A stretch of 33,192 bases of DNA, from positions 1-33,192 of the forward strand of contig JAAYVG010000030.1 of the NCBI GenBank assembly GCA_012517285.1, in the 5' to 3' direction. Made by a program: the position numbers and the translations under genes. Source of the DNA: Elusimicrobiota bacterium. Lineage in GTDB: Bacteria > Elusimicrobiota > Elusimicrobia > Elusimicrobiales > UBA9959. The notes beneath the pieces are model-generated. The model worked only from the letters and a program-made list of their open reading frames with translations. It had not been told where the DNA came from and made no database searches. This document shows positions 1-33,052 of this stretch, piece after piece (position 1 is the first letter of the stretch; every line of letters begins with the position of its first letter).

Positions 1-432
1 TGGTTCTGAACCAACAGCTGTAGAAGTATCATTAGAACTCTCTTCTGCTTTCTGCTTTCTGACCTCTGACTTCTGACTTCTGTCTTCTGTCCTCTGACCT
101 CTGACTTCTGTCTTGCTGTCCATAACAAATTTCACGCAGTGCCTTATAGTAGGATAATCCTTTAAGCTTATGCTCTCTTGCTTAGGGATACCAAAGCTCT
201 CTCTTATCATACCAAACAACTCTGCTTGCTTGACTGTGTCTATTCCTAAATCAGCTTCCATATCCAGATCTAAATCTAACATGTCCTTCGGATATCCAGT
301 CTTTGATGCTATCATATCCACTATCTTATCTGCTACTTCTTTCTCATTCAAACCTGTTGAATTATTAGTGGCTCGCTCTGAACCAACAGCTGTAGATGTA
401 ACCTTAAAACTCTCTTCTGTCTTCTGTCCCCT
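1..432 (-). repeat. In-frame 372-bp period in the ACP region (tandem ACP linkers)
   Basis: Bases 4-54 match bases 376-426 at an offset of 372 bp, which is 124 codons in frame. Both copies encode a linker ending TSTAVGSE, just before an ACP in the case of the right-hand copy. The left-hand copy therefore predicts that a second ACP begins immediately beyond position 1. Tandem ACPs are known from PUFA-type synthases; here the second one is inferred from the repeated linker. Confidence 0.7.
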
Positions 433-3400
433 ATTCTCTGTCCACTGACCACTGTCCACTGACCACTGTCCACTGTTCGCTGTCTTCACCGGCCCTTTAT
501 CCTTTATTCTCAGAGCATTGTTTACAACCTCAAGCTCAGGTGTGTCATAGCCTGAAATCCTTCTCAACCAATTGTTGTATCTTTTTTCATCTATTATTCG
601 CTTTTCTCCAGCTGTATAAGTGTTTTCAATAAAGCTCATGGCCATATGAGAACCAAAACCTGCAGCAAACCTTATAGCATATTTAAGATTATATTTTCCC
701 CCCTTTGAAAGATTTATTCCAACAAGTTCTGGATCAGGTTCTTTATAATTTGCTATTGGTGGAACGACTCCTGTGTTTAATGCCCTTATTGCAATTGCAT
801 CCTCAAGCGATGCTCCCATAGTATGACCTGTAAAACCCTTTACGTTGCTAACAATAACCTTAGATACATCATCACCGAATGTCTTCTTAAGTGCTTTAAC
901 CTCAGCAGATGCACTGCCACCACGAGCAGGAGTATATGTCTCGTGAGAAACAAAAAGTGTTTTTGGAGCTATTTCTTTTCTTGAAAGATTATATATTCTT
1001 TCAATCTTTGACATAAAATTGTTCATTATATCTGAGACATGATCTGTATCAAGCCTTGTCACATGATATGCACTGTTTTTTGCCTCGGTAAGAAGAATCC
1101 TTGCAAGTGGTACAACGCCTCTATCTCTTACAAGCGTTTCATCCTCTATAACCATGGCCACTGCACCAGAACCAACTATAAGGCCATGCCTTCTCCTATC
1201 AAAAGGTAAAGCTGCATCTTCAACCCTTGCCTTTGTTGTTGCTGTACCGCTTGCAACAAAACCAGGCATAAGCCATTCCTGAAGCAACTCATTAGATATA
1301 TCATCAGCTGCAACTATTATAACTCTCTTACACTTTCCACTTCTTATCCATGACTCAGCCACATGAACAGACTGGGTTGTGCTTGAGCATGCTGCACTTA
1401 AATGTATTGCAGGTCCCTTTGCTCCAACAAACTGAGCAAACTGACTGTCTGCTATAGGAATAACCTTTAAAAGAAAGTTTTGACTGAACTGATACTTGCC
1501 AGTTTTGCCGGAGCTAAAGTTAGCAAGGTTTTCTTTCATCCATTTCCTTATCTCTTTTTTATCCTCATCGCTATGAATTCTTTCAACTATTGAATCATAG
1601 ACATCCCAAAGCTTATCGTCACTCAACGACGAATACTTATTAACAAAATAATCTGTAACTTCCTTTACTATGGACTCAAGCACAGCAAAAGCTGACGCAA
1701 ATATAACACCTGTTTCATCTGCTATCTCATCAGGAAGTGCCCATTTTTCAGGCAACCAACTCCCGGTTGTAGTCTTTTTATAGTAGTGAACAAGTGGTAT
1801 ATGAGCATCCTTTAATGCAAGAACACCCGCGGCAATAGCCATACGAAATGTGCTGTTGAGTGAGTCAGCGATTTTTGGATCCACTCCAAAATCTTTCACC
1901 AAATCAAATCTTCCCTTTCTTGCAGAAAGCTTTATGGCACCATCAATAGAATCTATAGCCTCAATTCTGTGATTACCTGTTTCTGACTTTATGATTCTTA
2001 TTATGTTTTTGTTTATTTGCTTCTGCTGCCAATCCTCAGGAATTGGTTCAATCATATTGATGCCCTGAAGTATCTCATCAAGCCCTCTTTCCCTGAAAAG
2101 TTCTTTATCTGATCCCGGCACTCCAGCTGCTATACCTGAGACCGATATTGGATTAAAATTAAATCCATAGTTTTTAACAAACTCATTTATATCCATAGTT
2201 GCCTCCCTCCTCATCTCTTCTGACTTCTGTCTTCTGTCCTCTGTTCCTGCCTGCGCCGAAGTGGCTTCGCCATGCTGGTCCTGTCCTCCCGCCATTACAC
2301 CATTGACGGGCAGGCTGTCTTCTGTTTTCTGTCTTGTGTCTTCTGTCTTCTGACCTCTGACTTCTGACTTCTGTCTTCTGTCTTCTGTCTTAATCGCCCA
2401 GTTAAAATAATATGGATTATAAAACTTTGAATCAGGTTTTATGTATTTGTCAGACCAATTAAGTTTGAAGTTAACCGTTATAAGGTTTGCTATCGCATCA
2501 TTAAAATCATATATACCACCACGCTTTGGATGATTGGTTGAAAGTATAAAAATATCATCCTTATCCTTAAGAGTTTCCTTTACAAGCGACGAAAGGACTC
2601 TCTTAGGACCACACTCTATAAATATTCTGACTCCTTCAGCATACATCTTTTTCAACTGGTTTATGAATTCAACAGGGCTCACCATCTGTGTTACAAGAAG
2701 GTCATAGATTGCCTCTTTATCCTTTGGGAAAAAATCAGCAGTAACATTTGATATTATAGGAATATTCCAGCTTGATATTGGGATCTTCTTTAAAAATTCG
2801 CGATACGGGCCTATCGCAGGTCTTATGATCTCGGAATGAAAGGCATGTGACACAGCAACATCCTGAGTCTGAACCCCAAGTGCCTTAAAAAGATTTACAG
2901 CCTCATCCACAGCTTCCTTTTCACCAGCTATCACAGTCTGTATTGGACAGTTTTTGTTTGCTGCAACAACATAACCCTTAACCTTTTTAAGCTGTTCCTC
3001 AACCTTTTCATAAGGCCATGATATTGAGGCCATCTTTCCAGGATCCTTAACCTTTACATTGCTCATCTCCTTTGCCCTTGATGTAACAGCTCTAAGCCCA
3101 TTCTCTAAATCAAATATTCCTGCGGCTGTAGCTGCAGCATACTCTCCAAGACTATGGCCTATAACCATATCAGGCTTAACCCCAAAGGACATAAGCAATC
3201 TAAACATTGCCATATCAGCTGTCATAACAGCAGGCTGTGTCATCTGAGTTTGTTTTATTGCATTTTCTCTTTCAGCAAGCTGCTCTTTTGTTTCACCGGG
3301 TTTTGACCAGAGCGTATCTGTAAGTGTAGTTCCTATCATCTTTTCAAGTATTTTATCAGCCTCTTTAAATGTGTCCATAACAACATCATACTTCATAGCT

Positions 3401-5280
3401 AAATCCCTCATCATATCGACATACTGAGAACCCTGGCCCGGAAACACAAAACCAACCTTTCCTTTATAATTATGTTTTTTCTTGAAAGGATATATTCCCT
3501 TAAGCTTGAAACCAAGTGGTACATCATCAAATATGTTTTCATTCATGTTTTTTTTGATGAAATCAAGCTTTTCATTAAAATCACGAGGAGATTTTGAAAC
3601 AAGGGTGATTCCCATATCATCCTGATTCTTATCATTTAGTTCAACCGATATCAGCGTCTGTGGATAGACATCAGGAAGCTGTTTGATTTTTTCTCCAAGC
3701 TCATCTAACTTTGATGAAAGCTCTGAGATGTTTTTTGATGTAACTGTAAATGTTTCTCCCTGAAGAAGTGAAAAAGGTGCTTTAGGGTCTTCTTTAATCT
3801 CAACTGTATTCATTTTAATCTCCTCATTCCTATTTTCAACCGATACATTTTCAAATGCTGAATTAACTCCATACTTTGTTTTCCCTTCAACATACTCTTC
3901 CAAAGCAACGTGGAAGTTTGTCCCACCAAATCCAAATGATGACACATTTACTCGTCTTGTTCTATCTGTTTTCCACTCAAGTGGCTCTGTTATAACCTCT
4001 ATACCTGAAAAATCAATATTTGGATTGGGAATTTTAAAATTTGCAGATGGTGGAAGAATCTTTTTATACAACGATAGTGCTGCTTTTATAAGGCTTATAG
4101 AGCCTGCGGCAGCCTTTGTATGACCTATGTTTGATTTTGCAGATGTCACCATAATCTTTCTTCCACTAAGATATGGCTTAAAAACGTTATTTAAAACCTC
4201 ACACTCAGCAGCATCACCGGCCCTTGTAGCAGTTCCATGACACTCGACATAATCAACATCCCCAGGCGTATAATCAAGCTCTTTAAAAGCATTTTCTATT
4301 GCTATCTTCTGTCCCTTTGGATTAGGGGCTGTTATACCTTTTCCCTTGCCATCGCTTGAAGCACCAACAGAATTTATAACTCCATATATCCTATCACCAT
4401 CCCTTATAGCATCTGATAATCTTTTTAAAACATATATTCCAACAGCCTCAGCCATAACAAATCCATTAGCCCTCTCATCAAAAGGAAATGATCCATCAGG
4501 AGAGAGAGCACCTATCTTACAAAACTTAACATAAGCAGCAGGGCTCATCATCTCATCAGCTCCACCAGAGATCATAACATCAACCTTACCTGATCTCAAA
4601 GCCATGACAGCATAATCAAGAGCAGCAAGCGATGAGGCACACGCCGCATCAACAGTCAGGTTTGGTCCATTGAAATCAAATACATTTGCGATTCTGCCAC
4701 TGGTAATATTTGCAAGCTCACCAGGCATAGTATCCTCTGTTATTTCAAGTATATTATCATCAATTCTCTTTTCATAATCTTCTATAAATTTTTTCTTTTC
4801 ATCATCAGTCATTTTCATAAAGGCATCTGTTTCAAAAAACAAATATTCATTAAAAAACTTGTAAACCCTTAAATCTGAAAACTCCTTCTTCATAGCACCC
4901 ATAGCATTTGCTATTACAACTCCTACGCCTTTAGGATCCCATTTATTTGGAGAATAACCCGCATCATCAAGTGCCATCTTAACCGCTTCTATCGTAAGCT
5001 GCTGAAGCCTTGAGATCTGAACAGCAGAGGATGGTGGGATCCTGTATTTTATAGGGTCAAACTTAAAATTTTCAATAAATCCACCTATCTTTGAGTATGT
5101 CTTATCCTTTGCCTTATGGTCATCATCATAATAGAGATGCCAGTCCCATCTATCCTTTGGGACCTCAGTTATACAATTTTTTTTGTTTATAATATTGTTC
5201 CAGAACTCATCCTTATTAAAAGCCTTTGGTGCTATTATACCTATACCAGTTATGGCAATCTTTTCATTTTTAAAAATCAT
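1..5280 (-). CDS. Type I polyketide/fatty-acid synthase, KS-AT-KS-ACP..., C-terminus off the window
   Basis: One open frame of 1760 codons runs from ATG 5280 to the window edge with no stop; I checked the frame across the repeat tracts in 1-600 and found it open. It should build a long acyl or polyketide chain from malonyl units. Domains by residue: KS1 about 1-450 with Cys214 (DAACASSL), His348 (CHGTAT) and His387 (NIGHTK); AT about 605-900 with FPGQGSQ, Ser710 (GHSLGE) and His815 in HAFH, a motif usual for malonyl; KS2 about 1029-1560 with Cys1298 (SAACSSTT), His1446 (SHETYT) and His1486 (FTGHTMG); ACP about 1655-1725 with GIDTVKQ. Both KS triads look intact. The ACP has Thr1682 where phosphopantetheine Ser is expected. 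AAAGGAG lies just before the ATG. It follows the pilin genes by 211 nt. The product is unknown: PUFA-, glycolipid- or polyketide-type are all possible. Confidence 0.93.
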   Translation of the reverse strand, partial: MIFKNEKIAITGIGIIAPKAFNKDEFWNNIINKKNCITEVPKDRWDWHLYYDDDHKAKDKTYSKIGGFIENFKFDPIKYRIPPSSAVQISRLQQLTIEAVKMALDDAGYSPNKWDPKGVGVVIANAMGAMKKEFSDLRVYKFFNEYLFFETDAFMKMTDDEKKKFIEDYEKRIDDNILEITEDTMPGELANITSGRIANVFDFNGPNLTVDAACASSLAALDYAVMALRSGKVDVMISGGADEMMSPAAYVKFCKIGALSPDGSFPFDERANGFVMAEAVGIYVLKRLSDAIRDGDRIYGVINSVGASSDGKGKGITAPNPKGQKIAIENAFKELDYTPGDVDYVECHGTATRAGDAAECEVLNNVFKPYLSGRKIMVTSAKSNIGHTKAAAGSISLIKAALSLYKKILPPSANFKIPNPNIDFSGIEVITEPLEWKTDRTRRVNVSSFGFGGTNFHVALEEYVEGKTKYGVNSAFENVSVENRNEEIKMNTVEIKEDPKAPFSLLQGETFTVTSKNISELSSKLDELGEKIKQLPDVYPQTLISVELNDKNQDDMGITLVSKSPRDFNEKLDFIKKNMNENIFDDVPLGFKLKGIYPFKKKHNYKGKVGFVFPGQGSQYVDMMRDLAMKYDVVMDTFKEADKILEKMIGTTLTDTLWSKPGETKEQLAERENAIKQTQMTQPAVMTADMAMFRLLMSFGVKPDMVIGHSLGEYAAATAAGIFDLENGLRAVTSRAKEMSNVKVKDPGKMASISWPYEKVEEQLKKVKGYVVAANKNCPIQTVIAGEKEAVDEAVNLFKALGVQTQDVAVSHAFHSEIIRPAIGPYREFLKKIPISSWNIPIISNVTADFFPKDKEAIYDLLVTQMVSPVEFINQLKKMYAEGVRIFIECGPKRVLSSLVKETLKDKDDIFILSTNHPKRGGIYDFNDAIANLITVNFKLNWSDKYIKPDSKFYNPYYFNWAIKTEDRRQKSEVRGQKTEDTRQKTEDSLPVNGVMAGGQDQHGEATSAQAGTEDRRQKSEEMRREATMDINEFVKNYGFNFNPISVSGIAAGVPGSDKELFRERGLDEILQGINMIEPIPEDWQQKQINKNIIRIIKSETGNHRIEAIDSIDGAIKLSARKGRFDLVKDFGVDPKIADSLNSTFRMAIAAGVLALKDAHIPLVHYYKKTTTGSWLPEKWALPDEIADETGVIFASAFAVLESIVKEVTDYFVNKYSSLSDDKLWDVYDSIVERIHSDEDKKEIRKWMKENLANFSSGKTGKYQFSQNFLLKVIPIADSQFAQFVGAKGPAIHLSAACSSTTQSVHVAESWIRSGKCKRVIIVAADDISNELLQEWLMPGFVASGTATTKARVEDAALPFDRRRHGLIVGSGAVAMVIEDETLVRDRGVVPLARILLTEAKNSAYHVTRLDTDHVSDIMNNFMSKIERIYNLSRKEIAPKTLFVSHETYTPARGGSASAEVKALKKTFGDDVSKVIVSNVKGFTGHTMGASLEDAIAIRALNTGVVPPIANYKEPDPELVGINLSKGGKYNLKYAIRFAAGFGSHMAMSFIENTYTAGEKRIIDEKRYNNWLRRISGYDTPELEVVNNALRIKDKGPVKTANSGQWSVDSGQWTENRGQKTEESFKVTSTAVGSERATNNSTGLNEKEVADKIVDMIASKTGYPKDMLDLDLDMEADLGIDTVKQAELFGMIRESFGIPKQESISLKDYPTIRHCVKFVMDSKTEVRGQRTEDRSQKSEVRKQKAEESSNDTSTAVGSEP
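41..121. repeat. 7-bp repeat tract TCTGWCY inside the synthase, after the ACP
   Basis: Degenerate tandem copies of a 7-bp unit (tctgact, tctgtct, tctgacc and variants). On the minus strand they are translated in frame as a polar linker rich in Gln, Lys, Glu, Arg and Ser between ACP 1 and the predicted ACP 2. The same unit occurs at 412-483, 2205-2393, 21381-21400 and around 32945. Confidence 0.85.
412..483. repeat. 7-bp repeat tract inside the synthase, KS2-ACP linker
   Basis: The tract mixes the tctgtct unit with the second variant, gtccactgacc. The second variant is otherwise seen between genes at 7103-7212 and 21440-21503. Translated on the minus strand it gives a linker containing two GQWSVD copies. 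It lies exactly between the end of KS2 and the ACP. Confidence 0.85.
2197..2215 (-). promoter_or_regulatory. Shine-Dalgarno-like site and ATG inside the synthase, before KS2
   Basis: The minus strand reads GAGGAGGGAGGCAACT and then ATG at 2196, the codon for residue 1029 and the first residue of recognisable KS2 sequence. Both AGGAGG and GGAGG are suitably placed. This could be a relic of, or a working start for, a separate KS2-ACP protein. Confidence 0.5.
2205..2393. repeat. Composite repeat (7-mers plus palindrome) inside the synthase, AT-KS2 linker
   Basis: Two blocks of tctgtct-type 7-mers flank a GC-rich imperfect palindrome (2246-2278, core gccgaagtggcttcgcc) and an outlying piece gacgggcaggctg. 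The same palindrome, also flanked by 7-mers, recurs at 7159-7191, 21403-21433 and 30569-30601. Here it is translated in frame as about 60 low-complexity residues between the AT and KS2 regions. Confidence 0.85.
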
Positions 5281-7085: not shown

Positions 7086-7102
7086 CTATTACCTCCAACT
7101 AA

Positions 7103-7212
7103 ATAGTGATCAGTGGTCAGTGATCAGTAATCAGCAAAACCTTAAACAGTGAGCAATGCCTGCCTGCCGAAGCCGCTTTGGCGTAGGCAGGGATAGTCGG
7201 TCAGTGAATGGT
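7103..7212. repeat. Intergenic composite repeat between pilC and the pilin genes
   Basis: 7-mers of the form gatcagtggtcagt are followed by cagcaaaacc, then more 7-mer-like units, then the palindrome at 7159-7191 (gccgaagccgctttggc core) and gtcggtcagtg. Block order matches the copy at 21381-21503 when that one is read on the opposite strand, including the cagcaaaacc spacer. Confidence 0.8.
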
Positions 7213-21380: not shown

Positions 21381-21503
21381 GCCTGACTTCTGTTTTCTGT
21401 CTCTGCCTAAGCCGAAGCAGCTTTGGCAGGCAGGCACTGATCACTAATCACTGCCCACTGCTTTGGTTTTGCTGATCACTGTCCACTGACCACTGATCAC
21501 TGC
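21381..21503. repeat. Intergenic composite repeat between the ligase/pilus operon and tRNA-Thr
   Basis: Plus strand: tctg-type 7-mers (21385-21402), palindrome 21403-21433 (gccgaagcagctttggc core), cactgatcacta-type 7-mers, the spacer ggttttgctg, then more gatcactgtccactg 7-mers. Read on the minus strand, this is the same order as 7103-7191. It carries both the tctg variant and the cactg variant, so the two are parts of one family. Confidence 0.8.
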
Positions 21504-21510
21504 TTAAGAG

Positions 21511-26538: not shown

Positions 26539-26865
26539 AATAATTATTTAGGATCACTAAAAAGTTATATATATACTCATTTAGTCATCAAGATGAAGAC
26601 AGATTCATCAGGATGTAAACAGATATAATTAGTTATTTGGTTATTTAGGAAGAAGAATCATCAAGATCTAAACGGATAAGACATCTGATGAAGACAGAAA
26701 AGTTAGTTATTTGGTTATTTAGTTATTTAGTTGTTTGGGAAGAGAGGGCAAGGCAGTTATATAGTTATCTGGTTATTTAATCATCAAGATCTAAACGGAT
26801 AAGAATCAGATGAAGACAGATAAATTAGTTATTTAGTCATCTGGTTGTTTGGTTGTTTAGGAATA
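26539..26865. repeat. 8-bp AT-rich repeats with a 123-bp duplicated segment
   Basis: No gene is visible. The stretch consists of degenerate 8-mers (ttagttat, ttggttat, ttagttgt) alternating with catcaagat and gatgaagacaga blocks. A 25-bp block (aatcatcaagatctaaacgg and the next five bases) occurs at 26656-26680 and again at 26779-26803, and each copy is followed by a related gatgaagacaga block and more 8-mers. It differs in unit length and sequence from the 7-mer family. Confidence 0.75.
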
Positions 26866-26888: not shown

Positions 26889-27159
26889 TCTGGTCTTATT
26901 TTTGCTTCAGTCTTCTCAAATTTCATACGATCGTGTCAGAATGAAGGAAAACTATTTTTAATTTTATATCTAAACTGCAAGTTTTTTAATTATTCTTAAT
27001 AAATCCAGTTAAGTTTTTTTAAAAATTGTTTTTTTTGTCGATTTTTTTGGATTGGATAACGAATAATAAAATTTCCTCCCCCAAAACAACTAAACAACCA
27101 AATAACTAGATAACTTTTTCGAGTATCTCCTGTTATAACTTTATCTGAAAAATTATTTA
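26889..27159. other. AT-rich stretch without genes
   Basis: I see no credible reading frame here. It has long T runs around 26990-27055 and an inverted set of the 8-mers (aactaaacaaccaaataact) at 27084-27118, the reverse complement of the units at 26700-26735. Together these could bracket 26.7-27.1 kb as a large imperfect inverted repeat. Confidence 0.5.
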
Positions 27160-32929: not shown

Positions 32930-33052
32930 TGATCAGTGATCGGAAGACGGAAGTCAGAAATCAGAGGACAGAAAGGACAAAAAGCAATGATGATTAGTAG
33001 ATAAAGCGTTTCCTTTTACTGAACACTGATCACTAACCACTTATCACTAGTC
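32928..33052. repeat. 7-bp repeat tract after the DUF2156-like gene
   Basis: gtgatcagtgatcgg and gaagtcagaaatcagagg (both repeat variants) on the left and ctgatcactaaccacttatcact on the right, in opposite orientation, with about 50 nt of unique sequence between. The first units overlap the stop codon of the gene. No palindrome core is seen in this copy. Confidence 0.75.

What the first reader, a model, noticed from the sequence alone, without database searches (positions are those of the whole stretch)
1..2393. Dispersed 7-bp repeats are translated as interdomain linkers of the synthase
Seen: tctgwcy-type 7-mers, and once the GC palindrome, interrupt the synthase at exactly three places: AT|KS2, KS2|ACP and ACP|ACP. 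The reading frame stays open throughout and the repeats encode polar Q/K/E/S-rich stretches. The same elements lie between genes elsewhere in the window. Established parallel: Rickettsia palindromic elements inserted in frame within proteins. Inference: an intergenic repeat family invades a megasynthase only where extra residues are tolerated, acting as a source of domain linkers and possibly as recombination points for domain shuffling.
Basis: partly seen in the sequence, partly recalled or inferred. Interest (0 to 1): 0.75.

Follow-up and report, generated by a model that had tools for sequence, protein, structure and literature searches.

The report
Seven-base repeats forming enzyme linkers
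In a group of uncultured Elusimicrobia, short seven-base DNA repeats that normally sit between genes also lie, in frame, inside giant lipid-making enzymes, where they spell out the flexible tethers between the working domains; different species use different seven-base words at the same joints.

Summary
The synthase is a Type R-like "secondary lipid" synthase (KS-AT-KS2-ACPn-KR-DH plus PPTase, Elusimicrobiota), cut at the contig start and continued on contig C19. Heptamer arrays (TCTGWCY, CACTGWC) interrupt it in frame at AT|KS2, KS2|ACP and after the ACP, and on C19 at ACP|KR.

Among 42 synthase ORFs from 40 genomes, 27 arrays have period 7 and almost none any other period. They occur in 10 genomes of 7 genera, all at interdomain joints. 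The heptamer differs by lineage and usually matches words abundant in that genome. The sister species (79% identical) has ordinary linkers. A second PKS cluster shows the same contrast: 7 arrays in a heptamer-rich genome, none in six heptamer-poor ones.

A period of 7 encodes the same seven-residue cycle in all three frames, so an array is frame-agnostic if its total length fits; two paralogous linkers differ by exactly six units (42 nt). Most likely this is near-neutral capture and turnover of heptanucleotide repeats, filtered to disordered linkers. Domain shuffling and phase variation are not supported. Heptanucleotide repeats and in-frame repeat insertions are each known; recurrent use as megasynthase linkers appears undescribed.

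The parts
1..5280 (-). Type R-like secondary lipid synthase, 5' part: KS1-AT-KS2-ACP; continues on contig C19 (ACP-KR-DH)
3835..5265 (-). KS1 (ketoacyl synthase, aa 6-482)
   Evidence: Pfam PF00109/PF02801/PF16197
2551..3450 (-). AT (acyltransferase, aa 611-910)
   Evidence: Pfam PF00698
2308..2401 (-). heptamer array 1 in the AT|KS2 linker (GWCAGAR on the coding strand; about 11 units)
2236..2288 (+). GC-rich imperfect palindromic repeat (>=42 copies in the genome), translated in frame between arrays 1 and 2
2202..2244 (-). heptamer array 2 in the AT|KS2 linker
511..2181 (-). KS2 (second ketoacyl synthase; CLF position of Type R), about aa 1034-1590
   Evidence: alignment A1 and second ketoacyl-synthase stretches in Pfam; end points approximate
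413..492 (-). heptamer array 3 in the KS2|ACP linker (GWCAGTG, then GACAGAA)
133..330 (-). ACP (aa 1651-1716), GIDTVK motif
   Evidence: Pfam PF00550
35..120 (-). heptamer array 4 after the ACP; its paralogue on C19 is 42 nt longer
7100..7147 (+). intergenic CAGTGWT-type heptamer array
21389..21507 (+). intergenic composite: TTCTG heptamers, GC palindrome, CACTGWC heptamers
32946..33048 (-). intergenic heptamer arrays

Best explanation
These genomes carry families of heptanucleotide tandem repeats spread mainly between genes. Arrays, sometimes with an embedded GC palindrome, have also entered megasynthase genes and grow, shrink and turn over there. Only arrays in the flexible joints between domains survive, so the repeats become the linker sequence. 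Because 7 and 3 share no factor, a heptamer array read in any frame gives the same seven-residue cycle, so any array whose strand is stop-free and whose total length is a multiple of 3 makes a tether, mostly polar and disordered. The resulting sequence is near neutral; joint position and an open frame are what is kept. Shown: position, period, open frame, lineage-specific words, genome-vocabulary match, absence in the sister. Inferred: entry by copying rather than growth in place, and near neutrality.
For: Lag spectrum of 42 synthase ORFs (249.8 kb): 27 regions at lag 7, 13 at lag 14, 0-2 at every other lag from 2 to 20; all 27 at interdomain joints. Linkers are about 14% of the protein, so 27 of 27 by chance is about 1e-23 if independent, which they are only partly. 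Different words at the same joint in different lineages. Linker words match the genome's own: GTCACAA linkers (G003, G005, G009, G019, G025) and TCAKCC linkers (G003, G009, G011, G025) occur only in genomes with many copies; heptamer-rich genome against linker array, Fisher p = 0.001. In sampled G000, of 64 distinct arrays only those in this synthase lie inside an ORF. Paralogous linkers differ by 42 nt = 6 units. Self-identity in coding arrays falls from lag 7 (0.695) to 14 (0.628) to 21 (0.598), and mismatches are even over codon positions (155/171/158), so the repeat lives at DNA level. Same peptide in three frames verified for ten heptamers. Array linkers have the lowest model confidence (pLDDT about 22-36). 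Second PKS cluster: 7 arrays in heptamer-rich G014, 0 in six heptamer-poor genomes. Array presence needs 7 changes on the synthase tree, at least 4 by well supported branches.
Against: Three heptamer-rich genomes (G006, G010, G016) have no linker array at the threshold used, and G015 has one although its genome is poor in the three families tested. No empty site with flanks was shown, so entry by copying is not separated from growth in place. All sequences are metagenome assemblies; no reads or peptides were seen. Weak constraint for polar, disordered residues cannot be told from neutrality here.
Confidence: 0.75

Rival explanations
1. The arrays are contingency loci: loss or gain of one 7-base unit shifts the frame and switches the synthase off and on (phase variation).
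For: Unit length is not a multiple of 3, the classical design of slippage switches; two paralogous arrays differ in unit number.
Against: All 27 coding arrays are in an open frame, whereas a switching locus should often be caught off; the arrays are imperfect (mean neighbour identity about 70%), which lowers slippage; several arrays lie in one gene, each of which would have to be in register.
Confidence: 0.06
2. The arrays act as recombination points that shuffle or multiply domains, above all the ACPs.
For: ACP+array units are near-identical tandem copies (94%), and contigs break there.
Against: Relatives without any array have 4-5 tandem ACPs (G001, G032, G046) and domain order is the same in all. 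The ACP itself is a long enough homology for unequal crossing over.
Confidence: 0.1
3. Linker composition is selected at the protein level (heptad-like polar repeats) and the DNA periodicity is a by-product.
For: The peptide has a 7-residue period, and linkers in array-free relatives are also E/K/S/T- or A/P-rich.
Against: A protein-level repeat of 7 residues gives DNA lag 21, not 7; in the arrays lag 7 exceeds lag 21, and mismatches do not favour third positions. Peptides differ widely in composition (VTSHKSQ, LIPHPSS, DRRQKTE).
Confidence: 0.07
4. Assembly artefact: repeats wrongly joined inside the gene.
For: Contigs end at these repeats in this genome and in many relatives.
Against: Open frame through every array, in independent assemblies of 10 genomes with different heptamers, always at the same joints, with conserved domains on both sides.
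Confidence: 0.02

Closest known systems
Heptanucleotide tandem repeats (STRR / long simple sequence repeats) of cyanobacteria, Beggiatoaceae and xanthomonads (MacGregor 2015 PMC4679880; Rehm 2015 PMC4692102)
   Same: 7-base, often degenerate units in short arrays, mainly intergenic, many per genome; patchy between close relatives; MacGregor suggests insertions might be tolerated between subunits of modular proteins
   Different: Those reports place coding copies mostly at protein ends or in hypothetical proteins; here arrays recur at homologous interdomain joints of conserved megasynthases, with a different word in each lineage
Rickettsia palindromic elements (RPE), as reviewed in PMC10969869
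   Same: a dispersed repeat inserted in frame in protein genes
   Different: RPEs are about 150-bp elements with a conserved peptide in unrelated genes; here tandem 7-mers with no fixed peptide, found mainly in one class of protein
Borg tandem repeats creating disordered regions (PMC9879509)
   Same: tandem repeats translated into disordered regions
   Different: all Borg coding units have lengths divisible by three; here the unit is 7 and only total length is constrained
Type R secondary lipid synthase (Shulse and Allen 2011, PMC3098273; includes Elusimicrobium minutum)
   Same: KS-AT-KS/CLF-ACPn-KR with a downstream PPTase gene
   Different: an extra C-terminal DH region, and linkers made of heptamer arrays in some lineages

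Membership tests
Heptanucleotide tandem repeats (STRR/LSSR) | tandem units of 7 bases, degenerate | tested here: met
   lag-7 spectrum and Tandem Repeats Finder
Heptanucleotide tandem repeats (STRR/LSSR) | many dispersed, mainly intergenic arrays in the genome | tested here: met
   62 exact matches against 1 control; 21 of 29 regions of period 7, 14 or 21 in a 428-kb sample are intergenic although ORFs cover 90%
Rickettsia palindromic elements | one element of about 150 bp with inverted repeats encoding a conserved peptide | tested here: not met
   arrays are 7-mer tandems; the palindrome is about 50 bp and only one copy is in this gene
Rickettsia palindromic elements | in-frame insertion in many unrelated protein genes | tested here: not met
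   in sampled G000 only this synthase holds internal arrays
Type R secondary lipid synthase | KS-MAT-CLF-ACP(3-6)-KR domain order | tested here: met
   KS-AT-KS2-ACP on C51, ACP-KR-DH on C19; at least 2 ACPs here (gene split by a contig gap, so the number 3-6 is open), 4 in G001
Type R secondary lipid synthase | downstream PPTase gene | tested here: met
   L039 15058-15687, PF01648
Type R secondary lipid synthase | KS phylogeny groups with Type R | not tested
   no reference Type R sequences were placed in the tree
Phase-variable contingency locus | frame off in a share of copies | tested here: not met
   27 of 27 coding arrays in an open frame across 10 genomes
Phase-variable contingency locus | length variation within a population | not testable with these tools
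   no reads available

The most novel reading that the evidence does not exclude
Non-triplet (period-7) repeats are a recurrent, frame-agnostic source of protein linkers: in heptamer-rich lineages they repeatedly and independently rewrite the tethers of multidomain synthases from the genome's own repeat vocabulary, so that linker sequence is set by DNA repeat dynamics rather than by protein ancestry.
Probability: 0.5. Interest if true: 0.72.

Novelty: new variant of a known kind. Interest (0 to 1): 0.62.

Why it matters
It shows a concrete route by which non-coding repeat DNA becomes part of large conserved enzymes, explains why a unit that is not a multiple of three can be harmless in a gene (same peptide in all frames), and offers a natural series of orthologues with swapped linkers for testing how much linker sequence, as opposed to length, matters in lipid and polyketide synthases. 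Repeat-caused contig breaks here also show why such genes are often split in metagenome assemblies.

Tried and rejected
Domain shuffling: rejected because array-free relatives have as many ACPs. Phase variation: rejected because all arrays are in frame. Protein-level repeat selection: rejected by lag 7 > 14 > 21 and even codon-position mismatches. Family f11 genomes that carry the TCTGWCY repeat have no such synthase, so they gave no test. The synthase tree has two bogus long rows (G012, G036: another ORF was picked), which do not affect the array rows. The structure model is only moderate (mean pLDDT 60; the N-terminal part of KS2 is also low) and was used solely for domain against linker contrast. 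A single array in a UvrD-like helicase of G011 (L143) shows that capture is not strictly confined to synthases.

Full report
What is there. The window is the whole of contig C51 of a 1.96-Mb, 52-contig genome. The relatives with names are Elusimicrobia metagenome assemblies. The minus-strand ORF 5280-1 is open to the contig start and reads KS1-AT-KS2-ACP. The end of contig C19 continues it in the same orientation: ACP, array, KR, DH, then a PPTase gene. The ACP+array unit at the two contig ends is 94% identical, so the assembly broke there. The order KS-MAT-CLF-ACPn-KR with a downstream PPTase is that of the Type R secondary lipid synthases, a type that includes Elusimicrobium minutum (PMC3098273).

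The repeats. Period-7 arrays lie at AT|KS2 (two, around a GC-rich palindrome), KS2|ACP and after the ACP in the window, and at ACP|KR on C19. The window has 25 matches to two joined units against 0.25 by shuffling. The genome has 62 exact three-unit matches against 1 for the reversed control. The palindrome is a separate element of at least 42 copies, typically embedded in heptamers.

Coding against intergenic. In 428 kb of this genome (ORFs cover 90%), 21 of the 29 regions of period 7, 14 or 21 were intergenic; of the eight touching ORFs, four are the synthase arrays, and the rest are at ORF ends or A/T-rich. Among 64 distinct arrays in all stretches fetched, only those in the synthase lie inside a gene with coding sequence on both sides (the two arrays at contig ends are listed there as 'edge' because the contig stops).

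Relatives. A search with the synthase matched all 60 nearest genomes, most of them with a full-length or contig-broken orthologue and a few with weaker ketoacyl-synthase matches only. In 42 ORFs from 40 genomes (249.8 kb; two rows, G012 and G036, proved to be another ORF), 27 regions have lag 7, 13 its harmonic 14, and nearly none any other lag from 2 to 20. They come from 10 genomes of 7 genera, and every one lies at KS1|AT, AT|KS2, KS2|ACP, ACP|ACP or ACP|KR. The words differ: GACAGAA and GACAGTG here; GTCACAA, TCATCCC/TCAGCCT, GTTACCR, GAGAGGC, GTAGAGG, AATCGAA elsewhere. Two species of one genus (G003, G014) differ at the same joint. The sister species G001 (79% identical) has none in the gene and no exact TCTGWCY arrays in the genome. 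Presence needs 7 changes on the synthase tree, at least 4 forced by well supported branches.

Link to the genome's vocabulary. Genomes with GTCACAA or TCAKCC linkers are all among those with many copies of that word. For heptamer-rich genomes against linker arrays the table is 9/3 against 1/12, p = 0.001; species are not independent, so this is a guide. A second PKS cluster gives a further contrast: in heptamer-rich G014 it has 7 arrays, including an AT-ACP region and a KR|DH joint; in six heptamer-poor relatives the homologous loci (about 78 kb) have none.

How it works. With a unit of 7, three units make seven codons and all three frames give the same cyclic peptide; this was checked for ten heptamers. 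The opposite strand of several of them carries a stop, so orientation is filtered. Two paralogous linkers in this gene differ by exactly 42 nt, six units or 14 codons. Identity between units falls with distance (lag 7 0.695, lag 14 0.628, lag 21 0.598) and mismatches are spread evenly over codon positions (155, 171, 158): the process acts on DNA, with little sign of residue-level constraint. KS2|ACP linkers have the same median length (72 aa) with and without arrays, whereas AT|KS2 is longer with arrays (38.5 against 28, p = 0.006). The linkers have the lowest confidence in the predicted structure, as expected for disordered tethers. I infer near-neutral capture and turnover under two filters: an open frame and position in a joint.

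What is not supported. Array-free relatives have four or five ACPs, so arrays are not needed for ACP multiplication. All 27 arrays are in frame, against phase variation.

Known and new. Heptanucleotide repeats are a known class, reported as over-represented among longer-unit repeats in bacteria (PMC4692102, PMC4679880). MacGregor noted that stop-free orientation matters and that insertion might be tolerated between subunits of modular proteins, but found coding copies mostly at protein ends. In Borgs all coding tandem repeats have units divisible by three. I found no report of period-7 arrays as recurrent megasynthase linkers in the library searched; subscription journals are largely absent from it.

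Limits. All genomes are metagenome assemblies or drafts; arrays are related by descent and by ACP duplication, so the probability given for joint confinement is a guide only; the linker borders were set by eye from domain matches; only three word families were counted genome-wide.

Noticed in passing
window 133-330 and all orthologues: All 68 ACP copies of this synthase across the relatives have GIDTVK or GIDTIK, with Thr at the position of the phosphopantetheine Ser, although a PPTase gene is next door; the second PKS cluster of G014 has the usual GIDSIK.
   Followed up: partly
L193 2-522 (G014): The PKS linker has a higher-order repeat (GKVTSNQYPVSSQE, repeated several times) built of heptamers, up to the contig end.
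   Followed up: partly
L143 10846-10892 (G011): A GTCACAG-type heptamer array lies in frame inside a UvrD-like helicase/nuclease gene, after the UvrD_C match.
   Followed up: partly
window 26699-26740 and 27082-27116; L115, L117, L126: Other dispersed repeat families: 8-base (TTAGTTAT-type) arrays and 21-base CATCCTGATGATATCCGTTTA-type arrays between genes.
   Followed up: no
contig ends of G000, G005, G014, G019, G026, G030 and others: Contigs of many relatives end within or next to the ACP region of this synthase, so ACP counts from these assemblies are lower bounds.
   Followed up: no
L040-L057, L173-L184: Intergenic heptamer arrays often come as head-to-head pairs (CAGA array then TCTG array), which would fold as hairpins in RNA, possibly terminator-like.
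   Followed up: no
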